Positions 3,420 through 14,581 of a stretch of 64,000 bases of DNA are shown here, in pieces. The position numbers and the translations under genes were made by a program. The notes below the pieces were generated by a model that saw only the letters and a program-made list of their open reading frames with translations, ran no database searches and was not told where the DNA came from. This DNA comes from Methanohalobium evestigatum Z-7303. GTDB taxonomy: Archaea > Halobacteriota > Methanosarcinia > Methanosarcinales > Methanosarcinaceae. The stretch spans positions 496,001 to 560,000 of the forward strand of contig NC_014253.1 of assembly GCF_000196655.1 (NCBI RefSeq), read 5' to 3'. Each line of letters begins with the position of its first letter. Position 1 is the first letter of the stretch.

Positions 3420-4076
3420 TTAACCATCATTTTTGTCCAGTAATTTTTGTGCTGTTTTCCAGCTATGTCTAACTATATCTGGTAGTGATCCATATCTTTT
3501 AACCCAGTCTAAAAGAAATTGTTTCGTTTTCGGGTCAGACGGATAACCACTGCCAAAATCAACACCAAATTCTTCTTTCAAATTGTTTACCAGCTCATCA
3601 CGCCTGACCTTGGCAATTATTGAAGCCGCCGATACCACAGAATATACAACATCCGCCTCATGTTCAGAAATGATTTTTATATTTTCAGAAGCGGTTTTAT
3701 TGCTTTTTGAATATTCACTGCGTATTTTTTCTGCAAAACGTTCGGGTTTGACATCAGCAGAATCCACATAAACCAGTTCAGGGTTTAAATTTTCCACAAC
3801 CCTTGAAAAACCAAGAACCATGATATCATTCATGCTCATTACATTCCTGAGTTCATCTATCTGGGAGGGAGTGATTTCAAAGATAAAATAATTATCTACA
3901 TATTTTTTGATTTTATGAGCAAGTTCTTCCCGTTTTCTGGGAGATATTTTTTTGGAATCGGTCACTCCAAGGTTTTTTAGAGAATTAATTTTGGCTTCAT
4001 CAACCACTACACCTGCAATACACATGGAGCCTATAACAGGACCCTTGCCAGCCTCATCGATACCTGCAACTTTCAT
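3420..4076 (-). CDS. rnhB: Ribonuclease HII
   Basis: RNase HII cuts RNA in RNA-DNA hybrids, including single embedded ribonucleotides. The protein starts MKVAGIDEAGKGPVIGSM, where D7 and E8 are metal ligands. VYVDSAD supplies the third acidic residue, and SAASIIAKVRRDE with GSGYPSDPKTKQFL completes the family pattern. I chose ATG 4076, giving 218 aa. A longer in-frame opening to 4208 exists, but it runs back into the secretion gene upstream and lacks family similarity. It lies just downstream of the TadC-like gene on the same strand. Confidence 0.94.
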   Translation of the reverse strand: MKVAGIDEAGKGPVIGSMCIAGVVVDEAKINSLKNLGVTDSKKISPRKREELAHKIKKYVDNYFIFEITPSQIDELRNVMSMNDIMVLGFSRVVENLNPELVYVDSADVKPERFAEKIRSEYSKSNKTASENIKIISEHEADVVYSVVSAASIIAKVRRDELVNNLKEEFGVDFGSGYPSDPKTKQFLLDWVKRYGSLPDIVRHSWKTAQKLLDKNDG

Positions 4077-8461: not shown

Positions 8462-8701
8462 AGTAACTGCTCAATAAAATGTAATAATTAATTCAGACAA
8501 GTTAATGTTTTTTATAACATCATTATTATTGTTATAACTGTATTATTACATAAAATATTATTGGAAAAATATAAAACTATGTAGTAGAACTTAAATATTT
8601 TTGAATGATGTATAAAATAGAACAAAAATATTAAATCCAAAGTTGGGTATGTTGCTCTATAACTTATCAATAACTTGAAAAATTAAAAGAGGACTCCTTT
8701 T
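8462..8701. other. Intergenic promoter region between the pilus ATPase and pheT
   Basis: A 240-bp, strongly AT-rich region between divergent genes. It holds several TATA-like stretches (for example near 8545-8560 and 8600-8610) and the pheT ribosome-binding site GAGGACTCC just before ATG 8702. I see no RNA gene, long inverted repeat or open reading frame worth calling here. Confidence 0.5.
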
Positions 8702-10324
8702 ATGCCAGTAATAACCCTGAATTATGAAGATCTTGAAAGTCTTACATCAGTCGACAGGGATACCATAGTTGAGCAGATCCCCATGATGGGTGCAGACATT
8801 GAACGAATAGAAGACGAATATATAGATATCGAATTTTTCCCTGACCGACCTGATTTATACAGTGTAGAAGGTGTTGCTCGTGCCTTGAGAGGTTTTCTGA
8901 ACATTGAAACCGGTTTACAGGATTACAGATTGGATTCATCAAATATTGAAATTGAGAAGGATGAAGACATTGAACATATTCGCCCCTACCTTGCATGTGC
9001 TGTTATCAGAAATGTCAATTTCAATGCAAATTCCATAAAATCTTTGATGGATTTACAGGAAGATTTACACTGGGGAGTTGGGCGCGACAGAAAAAAGGTT
9101 TCTATCGGTGTACACGACCTCTCAAATATCACCCCACCTTTTAGATATATGGCTGCTGACCCGGATACAAAATTTATCCCGCTTGATTTTACAGAACCAA
9201 TGTCAATGAACCAGATTCTTGAAAAACATCCCAAGGGCATGAAGTTTGCATATATTCTTGAAGGTTTTAATGAATACCCTATAATACTTGATGCTGACGA
9301 TAACGTTCTTTCATTTCCACCCATAATTAACAGCACCCGCACTCAGATAACCGAGAATACAACAGACCTTTTTATTGATGTTACCGGGCTGAGTGAGTCG
9401 GTATATGTTGCCCTCAATGTGCTGGTTACTGCACTTGCAGAACGTGGAGGAAGTGTCGAATCAGTAAAAATTATAGATTCTGATGGTAATGAAAAAACCC
9501 TACCTGATTTAGAACCTTTATCCTGCGAACTTGAAGTATCAGAAATCAATTCATTGATAGGAACTGAACTGTCCCAGGATGAAATATTAAAGCAGCTCCA
9601 GAGAATGCGTTATGGTGCTGATATAAAGAATAATAAATCAATTGAGGTTAAAGTACCCCCATACCGTGCTGATATTCTGCACAATTATGATATTGTTGAA
9701 GATATTGCAATTGGGTACGGGTATGATAATATACAGCCGGAATTTCCTGAAAGTGCCACATTTGGTAGCGCTCATGAAGTGTCGGTTACCAGTGACAACA
9801 TATGCGAAATCATGACAGGTCTCGGATATTCTGAAGTTATGTCTTTCACTCTGAGTAATGAGCGGGTGCATTTTGATAATATGTGCCGTAACAGAACAGA
9901 TGATGTAACCTATGTCATGCATCCAATAAGTGAAGACCAGACAATGGTCAGGACAACAATACTTCCAAACCTTATGGAAATACTCTCCATGAACCAGCAC
10001 AGGGAGCTCCCACAATCCATCTTCGAGTTTGGGGATGTGGTAATAAACAATAAAATCCACAGAAATCTGGCTGCGGTATCTATTCACCCTGAAGTAAACT
10101 TTACCGATATAAGAGAGATTGTGGATGCTGTCATGCGTGAGAGAATGGTTGAATATGAAGTAGAAGAGTCTGATGACCCTGCATTTATAGGGGGCAGGCG
10201 TGCTGACATATTGGTAAATGGGAAAAAGGTTGGAGTCATGGGAGAAATCTACCCTCAAGTAATTACAAACTTTGGATTAGGTGAACCTGTTATAGGGTTT
10301 GAAATGGAAATTATGGATTACTAA
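8702..10324 (+). CDS. pheT: Phenylalanyl-tRNA synthetase, beta subunit
   Basis: The beta subunit of the (alpha-beta)2 enzyme that charges tRNA-Phe. At 540 aa it has the archaeal/eukaryotic length, without the bacterial N-terminal EMAP-like domain. Visible are the N-terminal [21 protein letters not shown], the B3/4 editing region (about 95-270, including [17 protein letters not shown]), the B5 domain with [26 protein letters not shown] (about 320-345), and a synthetase-like C-terminal fold. pheS is not in the window. The ribosome-binding site GAGG lies about 9 bp upstream of the ATG. Confidence 0.95.
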
Positions 10325-10333
10325 TAATTATAT

Positions 10334-10598
10334 TTAGTAATACTTTTCAATCCCTTCTCTTTCCTTTTTCAGGTTGTTCCAAGATACAAGATTATATACA
10401 ACCATTAATATTAGCGAAAAATTTAGTAAAATTGCTGCAATGGTGCCAAGATTTAAAAGGTCATCTTTTATATCCATGATTAGCGATTTAAAACCACTGT
10501 CCTTTTTGTACTGCGGATGCATGATATCCAATTTATCATCACTGTATCCAAGATCCAGAGAACGTCCTAATGCATGTCTGGATAATCTGACTGCTCTC
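10334..10598 (-). pseudogene. C-terminal remnant of a matrixin-type zinc protease, membrane-anchored
   Basis: Read on the minus strand from about 10598, an open frame encodes SRHALGRSLDLGYSDDKLDIMHPQY, followed by a transmembrane segment (LGTIAAILLNFSLILMVVYNLV) and a charged tail. The spacing matches the metzincin motif H-E-x-x-H-x-x-G-x-x-H...DIMYP, but the residues are H-A-L-G-R-S-L-D-L-G-Y. The general base Glu and two of three zinc ligands are therefore changed. The frame has no start until TTG 10531, after the motif. Upstream it abuts the end of the TnpB element. The probable N-terminal half is at 12222-12698, beyond that element. Confidence 0.65.
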
Positions 10599-10599
10599 C

Positions 10600-10760
10600 C
10601 AAGATGAAGTCATGGGGTTCTCTTGGAACCACGAGAACCTCAACCTTTGACGAGGTTGAGCATTTGCTGATTCATAGACGGTACTTGCGAACTGATACCG
10701 GGACCAGTCGTAGAGGTACCATCTCCACAGCCGTTCATTCCCGCGAGCCCCACGGTATGC
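10600..10760 (-). ncRNA. Predicted omega-RNA (reRNA) covering the tnpB 3' end
   Basis: TnpB nucleases use an RNA transcribed from the 3' part of tnpB through the element's right end, whose last bases come from flanking DNA and act as guide. Here the stretch after the tnpB stop is rich in pairing. AACCTCGTC and GACGAGGTT-like segments straddle the stop, GTTCTCGTGG and CCAAGAGAAC can pair, and the terminal hairpin ends near 10600. The call rests on position and on knowledge of the family; the 5' end is a guess. Confidence 0.45.
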
Positions 10761-11989
10761 GTAGTTGGATTATAGTACGATGATTTTGTCAGTATATTGG
10801 CTGAAGCGTTGAGGTCCCTGTCTATTTCCAGACCACAGTTACTGCAGTGAAACGTTCTGTCCTCTAATTTCAGTTTTTCTTTCTTCTTAGTACCACAATA
10901 GGAACAGACCTGAGTAGTGTTATCGGGATCTACTTTGTCTACAATCTTACCTCTTTCAGCAGCTTTGTAGGTCACGTGCTGGACCAGTTTGTTCCAGCCT
11001 ACATCCGATATAGATTTGGCTAATCTGTTGTTTTTTACAAGATTTTTTATTTTCAAATCTTCGAATACAATCAAATCATATCTTTCCACCAACAACTTAC
11101 TCAAACAATGCGAGAAATGGTTTCTTGCAGATGCTACTTTCCTGTGAATTCTGTTCACTTTCTGTTTCTGCTTGTTATAATTGTTTGATTTGAATTCCAT
11201 TTTCGCCAATTTCTGTTGTTCCTTAGCCAGTCTTTTCTCAGCTTTCCTGAGGAATCGTGGAGGTTCGACAAAATCATCGTCTGAAGTTGTTATGAAAGAT
11301 TTGAGTCCTATATCAATGCCAACAGCGTTTGTAGGAGTAGATGGAACTGGATTATCCGGTAGCTCTACGGTCAGATAAGCGAACCATTGTTTGCCTTCCT
11401 TCTTGAGGGTACAGGTCTTCAGTTCGCCGTCTGGCAATCTATCAATATCAATTTTGATGGGTTTTGATTTACCGGTTATTTTGGATAGGTATAACTTGTT
11501 ATCTTCAAGTTTCCATCCGTTCCCATGCTGTTTATATCTGAAACTACTGAAATCTTCTTTACTCTTGAACTTCGGGTGACCTTTCGGAAGGATTCCGCCA
11601 TATTTGATGAAGCCAGAAGAATTATTTCCACACGGGACATCTTTTCTCTTGACGAACTTCCCTTTTTTAGGTTTTGTATTCTTCAGTCTGCCTTTTTTCA
11701 AATCATCGAAGAACTTGTCATAGGCAAAACATAATCTCTGGAACACGTCCAATCTTACTGATGAATGTATAGGATAATCCAGATTTTTCAGATGGTTTTC
11801 CAGTGATGAATTAGATACCGATAAACCGAACCTGTCGTATAATTCTACTTTGATAGATAGAAGATGGTTCCAGATTAATCTGCAGTATTCCAGAGTATCA
11901 TCCAGTTTTTTCTCCTGTTCAGGTGTAATATGTATCTTGAACCTCAGATTCCTGCAGTTTTGACCTTCTTTGCGGACCATCAACTCCAC
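10640..11989 (-). CDS. tnpB: TnpB RNA-guided endonuclease (RuvC-like, IS605 OrfB family)
   Basis: A 449-aa TnpB, the transposon-encoded ancestor-type relative of Cas12 nucleases. The three RuvC acidic residues are all present: D226 in GIDIGLKSF, E310 in LIVFEDLKI and D392 in DRDLNASANIL. The zinc ribbon is C362/C365/C382/C385 (CSYCG...CSNCG). The N-terminal helix-turn-helix region (RFKIHITPEQEKKLD) is intact, and there is no stop or frameshift, so it may be active. The start is either GTG 11989 or ATG 11980, behind GGGTGGAG. No tnpA is adjacent. Confidence 0.93.
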   Translation of the reverse strand: MELMVRKEGQNCRNLRFKIHITPEQEKKLDDTLEYCRLIWNHLLSIKVELYDRFGLSVSNSSLENHLKNLDYPIHSSVRLDVFQRLCFAYDKFFDDLKKGRLKNTKPKKGKFVKRKDVPCGNNSSGFIKYGGILPKGHPKFKSKEDFSSFRYKQHGNGWKLEDNKLYLSKITGKSKPIKIDIDRLPDGELKTCTLKKEGKQWFAYLTVELPDNPVPSTPTNAVGIDIGLKSFITTSDDDFVEPPRFLRKAEKRLAKEQQKLAKMEFKSNNYNKQKQKVNRIHRKVASARNHFSHCLSKLLVERYDLIVFEDLKIKNLVKNNRLAKSISDVGWNKLVQHVTYKAAERGKIVDKVDPDNTTQVCSYCGTKKKEKLKLEDRTFHCSNCGLEIDRDLNASANILTKSSYYNPTTHTVGLAGMNGCGDGTSTTGPGISSQVPSMNQQMLNLVKG

Positions 11990-12221
11990 CCACTTACTTG
12001 ATACTGATTATATGTTTTGAAACTATATAAAATTTACATAATGCTAGCGATTATACCATGAAATATAGAGTTAATTAGAAATCAACGAGGTTTTTCATCA
12101 TTTTTTAAACGAATTTTAAAGATATTGGTAAATTTTCAATTTACCAAGTTTAAGTTTGAATCTAAATTTCTAATTTAGAGTATTCTGATTCAAAGAGCAT
12201 GAGTAAACTCATGGGCTTTCT

Positions 12222-12698
12222 TTATCCCTGCACTACGTTTATCGTAAACATCGTCTGGTCACTATATTGATTCCACACACGGTATCTGTAGGAACCCACT
12301 TCTAAAAGTATATCAGAATTTAGTATACTGTTTCCAGAAGTATCAAGTTCAGACACTACTGCAGTGTTTTTTTTGAGATTTTCATTATCCAGATGCTTTA
12401 CCCATCCTATCCTAATGTCGGGATTTTTTGAATCCACCAGTTTGAATTCAGGAGTAAAACCCAAATGCCCGTTTCCACCCTGTTCCCAGTATTCGAGAGA
12501 CTTTTTCACCTGTTCATAATAGGTGGATTTGTAATGTGACGGGACGTTTTCATCGTCAATATAGACGGTTATCGGTGATTCATCCCATGGATTACTATAT
12601 TTAACAGGATATTCATTTTGTGCTGTTGTAGATACACCAGAAGCCATTAAAACAAGGGCAACAATCCCCAGCAAAAGGATAGTATTGGTTTGCAACAT
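12222..12698 (-). pseudogene. N-terminal part of a matrixin-type secreted protease, truncated by the TnpB element
   Basis: A 158-aa reading frame with a signal peptide (residues 1-27, LLLGIVALVLMASGVSTTAQ), then NPWDESPITVYIDDENVPSHY, KSLEYWEQGGNGHLGFTPEF and SKNPDIRIGWV. This is the layout of the pro-catalytic part of archaeal matrixin-like (peptidase M10/M12-type) proteins: YEQV...ALxYWE, then an edge strand before the zinc motif. It stops at TAA 12222-12224, right where the TnpB element begins and before any HExxH motif. The expected remainder, with a degraded motif, is at 10334-10598. Product, if made, would be secreted and inactive as a protease. Confidence 0.6.
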
Positions 12699-12775
12699 TT
12701 ATATCGGAAAATAATTTCCATTGATTTTTATAAAAAGGTTTTGATGAAAAATGAGAATAAAAATTTGATATCTGT

Positions 12776-12794
12776 AAAAAATAACAGAAAAAAA
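12776..12794 (-). terminator. Oligo-T termination signal after tRNA-Arg
   Basis: Read on the minus strand, the tRNA is followed at once by seven T (12794-12788) and then six T (12781-12776). Archaeal RNA polymerase terminates at such T runs without needing a hairpin. Confidence 0.55.
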
Positions 12795-12894
12795 TGGCGG
12801 GCTCGCCGCGATTTGAACACGGGTCAATGGGTGTCTTCGCAACTTTATTGTTGCACCGAAGCCCATTAGGATGTCCTGACTACCCTACGAGCCC
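12795..12894 (-). tRNA. tRNA-Arg (anticodon TCG) with a 23-nt BHB intron
   Basis: The acceptor stem is GGGCTCG/CGAGCCC with G73 and an encoded CCA (12797-12795). The T arm is CCGTG-TTCAAAT-CGCGG. The anticodon loop, after removing an intron, is CTTCGGA, giving anticodon TCG. The intron at 12833-12855, at the usual 37/38 position, forms a bulge-helix-bulge: CTTC pairs with GAAG, GCAAC pairs with GTTGC, and two three-base bulges carry the cut sites (GG^T and AC^A). A TATA-like TATTATTAAA lies at 12921-12930. The EndA enzyme encoded at 54746-55810 would remove the intron. Confidence 0.9.
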
Positions 12895-12965
12895 ATTACA
12901 GCCCCATACAATTGCAACAATATTATTAAAGTTTTTCATTGAAACAATCCTTTTTCAGAAATTAA

Positions 12966-13724
12966 TCAGATGAAACCAATAATAAGTCTAATGGCTACAA
13001 CCCAGAGAACGATGCCAAACATCTGATTAATGGTTTTTGACTTCAACCTGTATATCATAAAATATGAACCTACCTGTGCACCGAGAAAGCCAGCTAAAGA
13101 TGAATATACCAATAAACCAGCATCAAGGCTTCCAGTACTTGTACCGATATGTCCCAAAAACCCGGAAATTGATGTAAACACAATGATAAATAAAGAGGTC
13201 GCAGAAGCGGTTTTTATATTGTATCCAAGATATACCAACAATGGGACTATAAATACCCCTCCACTTAATCCCAGCAAACCTGCAACAATTCCTATCATAA
13301 AACCCGATATCAGACTAATAATCACATTTTTTCTGGTTCCTCTACCAGTACACTTTAGATGTCCTATTCTGGAACTGGTAAATACCATATGAATCCCTAT
13401 TAACAGCAACAAAACAGCAAATATCAATATCAGTAAATCCTGAGGTGTGCTTTTTGAAAAATAGGCTCCTATTGGTGCTCCTGCAACTGATGTTAATATT
13501 AAAGGTATTGCAGTTTTAAAATCCACCATCTTTTTTTTAGTGTAAAAAATGGTTGCTGAACCTGTAGCAAACGTGTTTATCAGTAGTACTGTTGGAATAA
13601 CAATATGCAAATCTATGCCTATCCAGTATAGGAGAGGAACATAGATTGTGGAACCGCCTGTGCCAATAATTGAAAACAGTATTGCAAGGAAAAAAACAAT
13701 TATAGCGATTAAAAACGGCTCCAT
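12966..13724 (-). CDS. TauE/SafE (DUF81) family membrane permease
   Basis: A 252-aa polytopic membrane protein with about eight hydrophobic helices. The family hallmarks are the two inverted repeats with Gly-rich starts, SIIGTGGSTIYVPLLYWIGI (about residues 18-37) and AGLLGLSGGVFIVPLLVYLGY (about 148-168). Members export or import sulfur-containing anions or other organic anions; substrate cannot be read from sequence. It stands alone, between the tRNA and the divergently oriented nitroreductase. Confidence 0.88.
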   Translation of the reverse strand: MEPFLIAIIVFFLAILFSIIGTGGSTIYVPLLYWIGIDLHIVIPTVLLINTFATGSATIFYTKKKMVDFKTAIPLILTSVAGAPIGAYFSKSTPQDLLILIFAVLLLLIGIHMVFTSSRIGHLKCTGRGTRKNVIISLISGFMIGIVAGLLGLSGGVFIVPLLVYLGYNIKTASATSLFIIVFTSISGFLGHIGTSTGSLDAGLLVYSSLAGFLGAQVGSYFMIYRLKSKTINQMFGIVLWVVAIRLIIGFI

Positions 13725-13978
13725 TATTTATCCCTGTGGTATTAATTCACTAATTTTTCAACACACTGTCCCAGCAAATTTACCAAAATTTTATCTCACT
13801 ACAATTCAACATAACCAACTCCAACTTTTTAGATTTATCTATCGATTATAAATGTTGATGGTTAATATTGCAAAACACTTGATAGACATTTTCAACAATT
13901 ATTTATAAATTCGCAGCATCAGTGTATTTAAAAGGGGAGTAGGGAGTATAAATATAATGAAAGTTTTGAGGTTATTGT

Positions 13979-14581
13979 ATGGCTGAAGAAAATATTGAAG
14001 AAAATCCAGTTATTGAAGCTATAAAATCACGCCGTAGTGTAAGGGATTATATTGATAAACAGGTCTCTGAAGATACTGTTAACCAAGTTATAGATGCTGG
14101 TATCCATGCACCCACAGCACTGGGTCTACAACCCTGGAACTTTGTAGTTATTAGTGGTAAAGACATTATAAAGGAGATATCAGACCACATAAAACCAATG
14201 GTGCAGGAACATCTCAAGGACAGTACTGAACAACTGGCCAAAGACCTGAAAGAGAAAATGAAAAACAAAGATTTCAATCTATTCTATGATGCCCCAATTC
14301 TGGTGCTTGTAATGCACAACAGGGACGACAAACTGGCTGACTATGACTGTGCTCTCTGTGCGGAAAATATGATGCTTGCAGCCCATTCGCTGGGTCTGGG
14401 TAGCTGCTGGATTGGTGCAGGTGCTTTTATACAGCAGAGCCCTGAATTGCTGGATGACCTTGATATACCACATGATTTCGAGATAGTGGCACCGATAATA
14501 CTGGGTTATCCAAGAAGCACACCATCTCCTATTGACAGATGCGAACCAATGGTATCATGGATATACAAGAAAAAAGATTAA
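13979..14581 (+). CDS. Nitroreductase-family flavoprotein
   Basis: A 200-aa FMN-dependent oxidoreductase of the nitroreductase superfamily. IKSRRSVRDYIDKQVSEDTVNQVIDAGIHAPTALGLQPWNFVVI (residues 15-58) is the FMN-binding N-terminal signature. CALCAENMMLAAHSLGLGSCWIGA (about 122-145) is the second conserved helix, and the C-terminal GYPRSTP supports the fold. The natural substrate is unknown. It starts at ATG 13979 behind a GAGG site, and is followed 27 bp later by a membrane-anchored unknown. Confidence 0.9.
   Translation: MAEENIEENPVIEAIKSRRSVRDYIDKQVSEDTVNQVIDAGIHAPTALGLQPWNFVVISGKDIIKEISDHIKPMVQEHLKDSTEQLAKDLKEKMKNKDFNLFYDAPILVLVMHNRDDKLADYDCALCAENMMLAAHSLGLGSCWIGAGAFIQQSPELLDDLDIPHDFEIVAPIILGYPRSTPSPIDRCEPMVSWIYKKKD

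What the first reader, a model, noticed from the sequence alone, without database searches (positions are those of the whole stretch)
10334..12698. A matrixin-type protease gene that is both split by a TnpB element and has lost its zinc motif
The signal-peptide half (12222-12698) and the C-terminal, membrane-anchored half (10334-10598) lie on the same strand either side of a TnpB element. In the second half the expected H-E-x-x-H-x-x-G-x-x-H reads H-A-L-G-R-S-L-D-L-G-Y. Each altered codon is one base from the functional one (GAA to GCA, CAT to CGT, GGT to GAT, CAC to TAC). Decay by point mutation has therefore gone along with the insertion.
Basis: partly seen in the sequence, partly recalled or inferred. 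Interest (0 to 1): 0.6.

Follow-up and report, generated by a model that had tools for sequence, protein, structure and literature searches.

The report
TnpB element inside a matrixin pseudoprotease
A membrane-anchored protease-like gene that had already lost its zinc-binding active site in this archaeal genus was later cut in two by a common TnpB mobile element in this one genome, so the dead active site is mostly older than the break, not a result of it.

Summary
A matrixin-type (Pfam PF00413) gene on the minus strand is split by a clean 1657-bp TnpB element (10587-12243) inserted after TTTAC, and its zinc motif reads HALGRSLDLGY. A sister species (Methanohalobium sp. MAG, JAHENT01) has the empty site with both flanks 95% identical. 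Its uninterrupted 235-codon ORF reads HALGRSLGLGY. So three of the four motif losses (Glu to Ala, His to Arg, His to Tyr), with identical codons, predate the insertion. Only Gly to Asp is private to this genome. The two copies show purifying selection (omega 0.35, p = 0.0015 against 1; N half 0.25). Both genomes also keep a canonical HEFGHALGLGH paralog in the neighbourhood conserved in related genera. Essentially all of the ~108 other Methanosarcinaceae copies read HExGHAxGLxH. The gene was therefore a genus-level pseudoprotease, later interrupted by an ordinary IS200/IS605-type TnpB element. After the insertion the separated C-terminal half seems to have drifted: 7 of the 9 changes polarised there fall on this lineage, against 2 of 13 in the N half (p = 0.007). 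Modest interest.

The parts
12244..12698 (-). N-terminal half of the pseudo-matrixin gene: signal peptide and start of the metzincin-like domain (151 codons + 2 bases)
   Evidence: 94.5% nt identical to the intact ortholog over this flank; reading frame open
12244..12248 (-). TTTAC immediately 5' of the element left end (putative target / transposon-associated motif)
   Evidence: Direct reading and empty-site comparison; other copies sit after TTTAC, ATTAC or TTTAT
10587..12243 (-). TnpB element, 1657 bp, IS200/IS605-type, no tnpA; left end GATAAACG..., right end ...GGGAGAGCAGTCAG
   Evidence: Absent from the sister-species locus; the same ends occur in independent copies; 1657 is not a multiple of 3
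10640..11989 (-). tnpB ORF, 449 aa, intact, with RuvC-type motifs VGIDIG / VFEDL / IDRDLNA
   Evidence: PF01385 E 9.5e-29, PF07282 E 3e-22; NF040570 guided_TnpB 284 bits against a cut-off of 100
10567..10586 (-). 20 nt after the right end (ATTATCCAGACATGCATTAG): expected omega-RNA/reRNA guide; covers the codons LSRHAL of the pseudo-active-site helix
   Evidence: Position by analogy with ISDra2 TnpB (PMC8612924); TAM + 19 nt matches with 0 mismatches only the empty allele of G001
10544..10576 (-). Degenerate zinc motif HALGRSLDLGY
   Evidence: Codons read; family form HExGHAxGLxH in essentially all of the ~108 other copies
10334..10586 (-). C-terminal half: remnant of the active-site helix, Met-turn DIMHP, transmembrane segment, basic tail, stop codon
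   Evidence: 95.2% nt identical to the intact ortholog over this flank; no start codon of its own before the TTG at 10531

Best explanation
A two-step history. Step 1: a second copy of the family's single-pass, secreted/membrane-anchored matrixin lost the catalytic Glu and two of the three zinc-binding His residues (HExxHxxGxxH to HALGRSLGLGY) before the two sampled Methanohalobium species split. It stayed an intact, constrained ORF, that is, a pseudoprotease with probably a binding role (decoy, chaperone or regulator of the active paralog; inferred). Step 2: in the lineage of this window an IS200/IS605-type TnpB element inserted 3' of TTTAC, just upstream of the codon of the pseudo-active-site His, and broke the gene. 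The part downstream of the insertion then drifted (for example the private Gly to Asp). Shown: empty site, shared motif losses, purifying selection on the pair, active paralog. Inferred: binding function, neutrality after insertion, TnpB guide targeting of the empty allele.
For: Empty site with 95% identical flanks, and exact junctions. Intact 235-codon ortholog reading HALGRSLGLGY with identical GCA, CGT and TAC codons. Pairwise codon ML: omega 0.35 (p = 0.0015 against 1), N half 0.25 (p = 0.0006); active paralog 0.17, pheT 0.13, SafE-like 0.14. Simulated neutral drift over the same distance gives about 59 aa changes and 3.1 stops, against 24 and 0 seen. The canonical paralog HEFGHALGLGH is present in both genomes and lies in the ogt/HAD/AtwA neighbourhood conserved across related genera, whereas the pheT and SafE neighbours occur only at the Methanohalobium pseudo locus. 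About 108 other family copies keep HExGHAxGLxH. 37 of 45 near-invariant family columns are kept, and losses cluster at the active site. After insertion: 7 of 9 polarised C-half changes fall on this lineage against 2 of 13 in the N half, p = 0.007.
Against: Only two genomes carry the pseudo copy, and the intact one is a MAG. Omega of the C half alone is 0.76, not different from 1 (p = 0.65, 83 codons), so constraint is shown only for the ectodomain and the whole. Omega (0.35) is higher than for the active paralog (0.17), although codon counts do not separate them (Fisher p = 0.16). Polarising changes by distant family frequencies is crude. The structure model was too poor to use (mean pLDDT 53).
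Confidence: 0.82

Rival explanations
1. One reading: an active matrixin was broken by the TnpB insertion and then decayed by point mutation, including all four motif positions.
For: Gly to Asp is private to the interrupted copy, and the C half shows excess change on this lineage.
Against: Three of the four motif changes, with identical codons, are in an uninterrupted ortholog at the same locus.
Confidence: 0.04
2. The duplicate was already a decaying pseudogene in the common ancestor, merely without stops yet; neither genome has a functional product.
For: Omega is raised relative to the paralog and pheT; C half 0.76, not different from 1; long branch of 1.49 changes per column.
Against: Omega of the N half 0.25, p = 0.0006, and of the whole 0.35, p = 0.0015. 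No stop or indel over 705 bp between the two copies; neutral expectation is 3.1 stops, P(0) = 0.04, and 59 against 24 aa changes. 37 of 45 near-invariant family columns are kept.
Confidence: 0.1
3. The element is removed from the transcript (IStron-like self-splicing group I intron), so the protein is still made whole.
For: Same orientation as the gene; both exon-like halves free of stops.
Against: No Rfam match of any kind in 8500-14500 at E up to 0.5. The element ends are ordinary IS200/IS605-type ends shared with copies elsewhere. C-half changes accumulate on this lineage.
Confidence: 0.01

Closest known systems
Matrixin family metalloproteases (MEROPS M10A / Pfam PF00413), Methanosarcinaceae single-pass copy
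   Same: Signal peptide, metzincin-like domain with PW-D-PITV, YW-GGNG, first His of the motif, Met-turn DIM-P, C-terminal transmembrane segment; the intact ortholog scores above the Pfam cut-off.
   Different: Catalytic Glu and two of the three zinc His are lost; gene interrupted in this genome.
Substituted-HExxH zincins / pseudoproteases (e.g. inactive ADAMs, CLCA members; PMC3650047)
   Same: Non-random loss of HExxH in a retained ORF beside an active paralog. Glu to Ala and His to Arg are among the over-represented substitutions reported there.
   Different: Archaeal matrixin, genus-restricted, function untested; this copy is additionally broken.
IS200/IS605-type TnpB elements without tnpA (IS1341-like), cf. 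ISDra2 TnpB (PMC8612924)
   Same: Insertion 3' of a T-rich TAM, no target duplication, intact RuvC-type TnpB, right end abutting a would-be guide.
   Different: Nothing unusual seen; one of about 85 TnpB-like loci in this genome.

Membership tests
Matrixin (M10A) | Sequence match to the family over the whole domain | tested here: met
   Intact ortholog PF00413 E 3e-9, 37.4 bits against a cut-off of 24; canonical paralog 1.2e-16; the family profile hits solved MMP catalytic domains, MMP-14 E 3.5e-10.
Matrixin (M10A) | Zinc-binding/catalytic motif HExxHxxGxxH | tested here: not met
   HALGRSLDLGY in the window, HALGRSLGLGY in the ortholog: an evolutionary relative, not an active protease.
Matrixin (M10A) | Met-turn downstream of the motif | tested here: met
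   DIMHP in the window and G001 against DIMYP in most relatives.
Conserved pseudoprotease | Intact ORF with the inactive motif under purifying selection | tested here: met
   G001 ORF of 235 codons; pair omega 0.35, p = 0.0015. Only two genomes; C half alone inconclusive.
Conserved pseudoprotease | No proteolysis; binding function | not testable with these tools
   Needs protein work.
IS200/IS605-type TnpB element | TnpB with HTH, OrfB and zinc-ribbon/RuvC domains | tested here: met
   PF12323, PF01385, PF07282; NF040570 over the cut-off.
IS200/IS605-type TnpB element | Clean insertion 3' of a short TAM without target duplication, ends shared among copies | tested here: met
IS200/IS605-type TnpB element | RNA-guided cleavage of the empty allele | not testable with these tools
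   TAM and target are intact in G001, but activity was not tested.
IStron (group I intron + TnpB) | Group I intron core in the element | tested here: not met
   No Rfam hit at E up to 0.5.

The most novel reading that the evidence does not exclude
After the insertion, the truncated 158-aa secreted N-terminal fragment of the pseudoprotease is still made and still under selection in this organism, while only the detached C-terminal part drifts: a pseudoenzyme cut down to a soluble fragment by a mobile element.
Probability: 0.12. Interest if true: 0.4.

Novelty: new member of a known kind. Interest (0 to 1): 0.3.

Why it matters
It separates two events that look like one in a single genome: active-site loss in a duplicated gene, and later interruption by a mobile element. 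It adds an archaeal, genus-restricted matrixin pseudoprotease with an active paralog in the same cell, a small natural case for asking what inactive zincins do.

Tried and rejected
ARAGORN without introns and Rfam found nothing at the neighbouring tRNA; ARAGORN with introns did. IStron reading rejected. TnpB guide acting on the active paralog rejected: no TAM+guide match with up to 3 mismatches elsewhere in either genome. A wider genus sample was sought in genome contigs; only the same MAG and one Methanohalophilus homolog came back. AlphaFold model from a two-row alignment too poor (mean pLDDT 53), so no fold search was run. A 'split' copy in G069 is a contig break with a 55-base overlap. Two apparent motif exceptions (L068, L146) were parsing errors. 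No paper held combines Methanohalobium evestigatum with TnpB.

Full report
What is there. The window lies in a 2.41-Mb genome of two contigs (2,242,317 and 163,915 bases). The sizes fit Methanohalobium evestigatum Z-7303 from memory (a lead, not a test). The one other genome of the same genus, G001, is the Methanohalobium sp. MAG JAHENT01. On the minus strand, between pheT (8702-10324, convergent) and an intron-containing tRNA-Arg gene, lies a gene broken into 12244-12698 and 10334-10586 by a TnpB element.

The empty site. In G001 the same locus is colinear and the gene is whole: 705 bp, 235 codons, no stop, no indel. The window differs by a clean insertion of 1657 bp (10587-12243) directly after TTTAC. 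Other copies in both genomes share the left end GATRAACG... after TTTAC, ATTAC or TTTAT, and the right end ...GAGAGCAGTCAG or close variants of it. This defines the element independently. Its TnpB is intact and a member of the RNA-guided TnpB family. It has no tnpA; a few Y1 transposases exist elsewhere in the genome. About 85 TnpB-like loci occur genome-wide, so the element is ordinary. By analogy with ISDra2 (PMC8612924), the roughly 16-20 nt after the right end would be the guide. Here that is ATTATCCAGACATGCATTAG, the codons around the first motif His. TTTAC plus 19 nt of it occurs without mismatch only in the G001 empty allele, with no further match at up to 3 mismatches in either genome apart from the element junction itself.

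Family. The intact ortholog and the canonical paralog are matrixins (PF00413 E 3e-9 and 1.2e-16), and a profile of the family matches MMP catalytic domains of known structure. 98 of 112 family genomes carry the gene. In the ~108 other copies fetched, the motif is HExGHAxGLxH. Most canonical copies outside Methanosarcina-like genus g7 and its near relatives sit next to ogt, an HAD-type gene and AtwA, and so does the canonical paralog of both Methanohalobium genomes. Neither pheT nor the SafE-like neighbour of the pseudo copy lies next to the gene in any other genome. In the tree the two pseudo copies form a pair (100/100) on a branch of 1.49 changes per column, old or fast, with uncertain attachment.

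When the motif was lost. Window: CAT GCA TTA GGA CGT TCT CTG GAT CTT GGA TAC. G001: CAT GCA TTA GGA CGT TCT CTA GGT CTT GGA TAC. Ala, Arg and Tyr are shared; Asp is private to the window. Three of the four losses therefore predate both the species split and the insertion. Lenart et al. (PMC3650047) report Glu to Ala and His to Arg as over-represented in substituted-HExxH proteins, with roles as decoys or accessories of active paralogs suggested but unproven.

Selection. Pairwise codon ML between the two copies: N half omega 0.25 (p = 0.0006 against 1), C half 0.76 (p = 0.65), both 0.35 (p = 0.0015); active paralog 0.17, pheT 0.13, SafE-like 0.14. Neutral simulation over the same distance expects 59 aa changes and 3.1 stops; 24 and 0 are seen. 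This supports a constrained pseudoprotease, though a less constrained one than its paralog. Polarised by the family, N-half changes fall on the G001 side (11 of 13) and C-half changes on the window side (7 of 9), Fisher p = 0.007, or 0.04 with a stricter count. This fits drift of the detached C half after insertion, with the N half still constrained or the insertion recent. Numbers are small.

Verdict. The finding is real. The causal coupling is mostly wrong: active-site loss came first, in a retained paralog, and the insertion came second.

Noticed in passing
window 12795-12894, minus strand: tRNA-Arg(TCG) with a 23-nt intron in the anticodon loop, identical in the sister species; missed by ARAGORN without the intron option and by Rfam.
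   Followed up: partly
L039:10981-11339 (G001): A 359-bp internally deleted, non-autonomous relative of the same TnpB element (left end + right end, no tnpB ORF) inserted at a site that is empty in the window near 3439-3440: a reciprocal insertion polymorphism.
   Followed up: partly
whole genome G000: About 85 TnpB/Cas12f-like TNB-domain matches but only a few Y1 transposase (TnpA) matches in 2.4 Mb.
   Followed up: no
genomes G020, G105, G106, G107, G113, G114, G116, G122, G126, G128, G130 (genus g7): Second matrixin copies with HELGHALGL[DNE]H; those sampled in the tree form their own clade within genus g7; matches in G114, G119, G122 and G126 contain one in-frame stop.
   Followed up: partly
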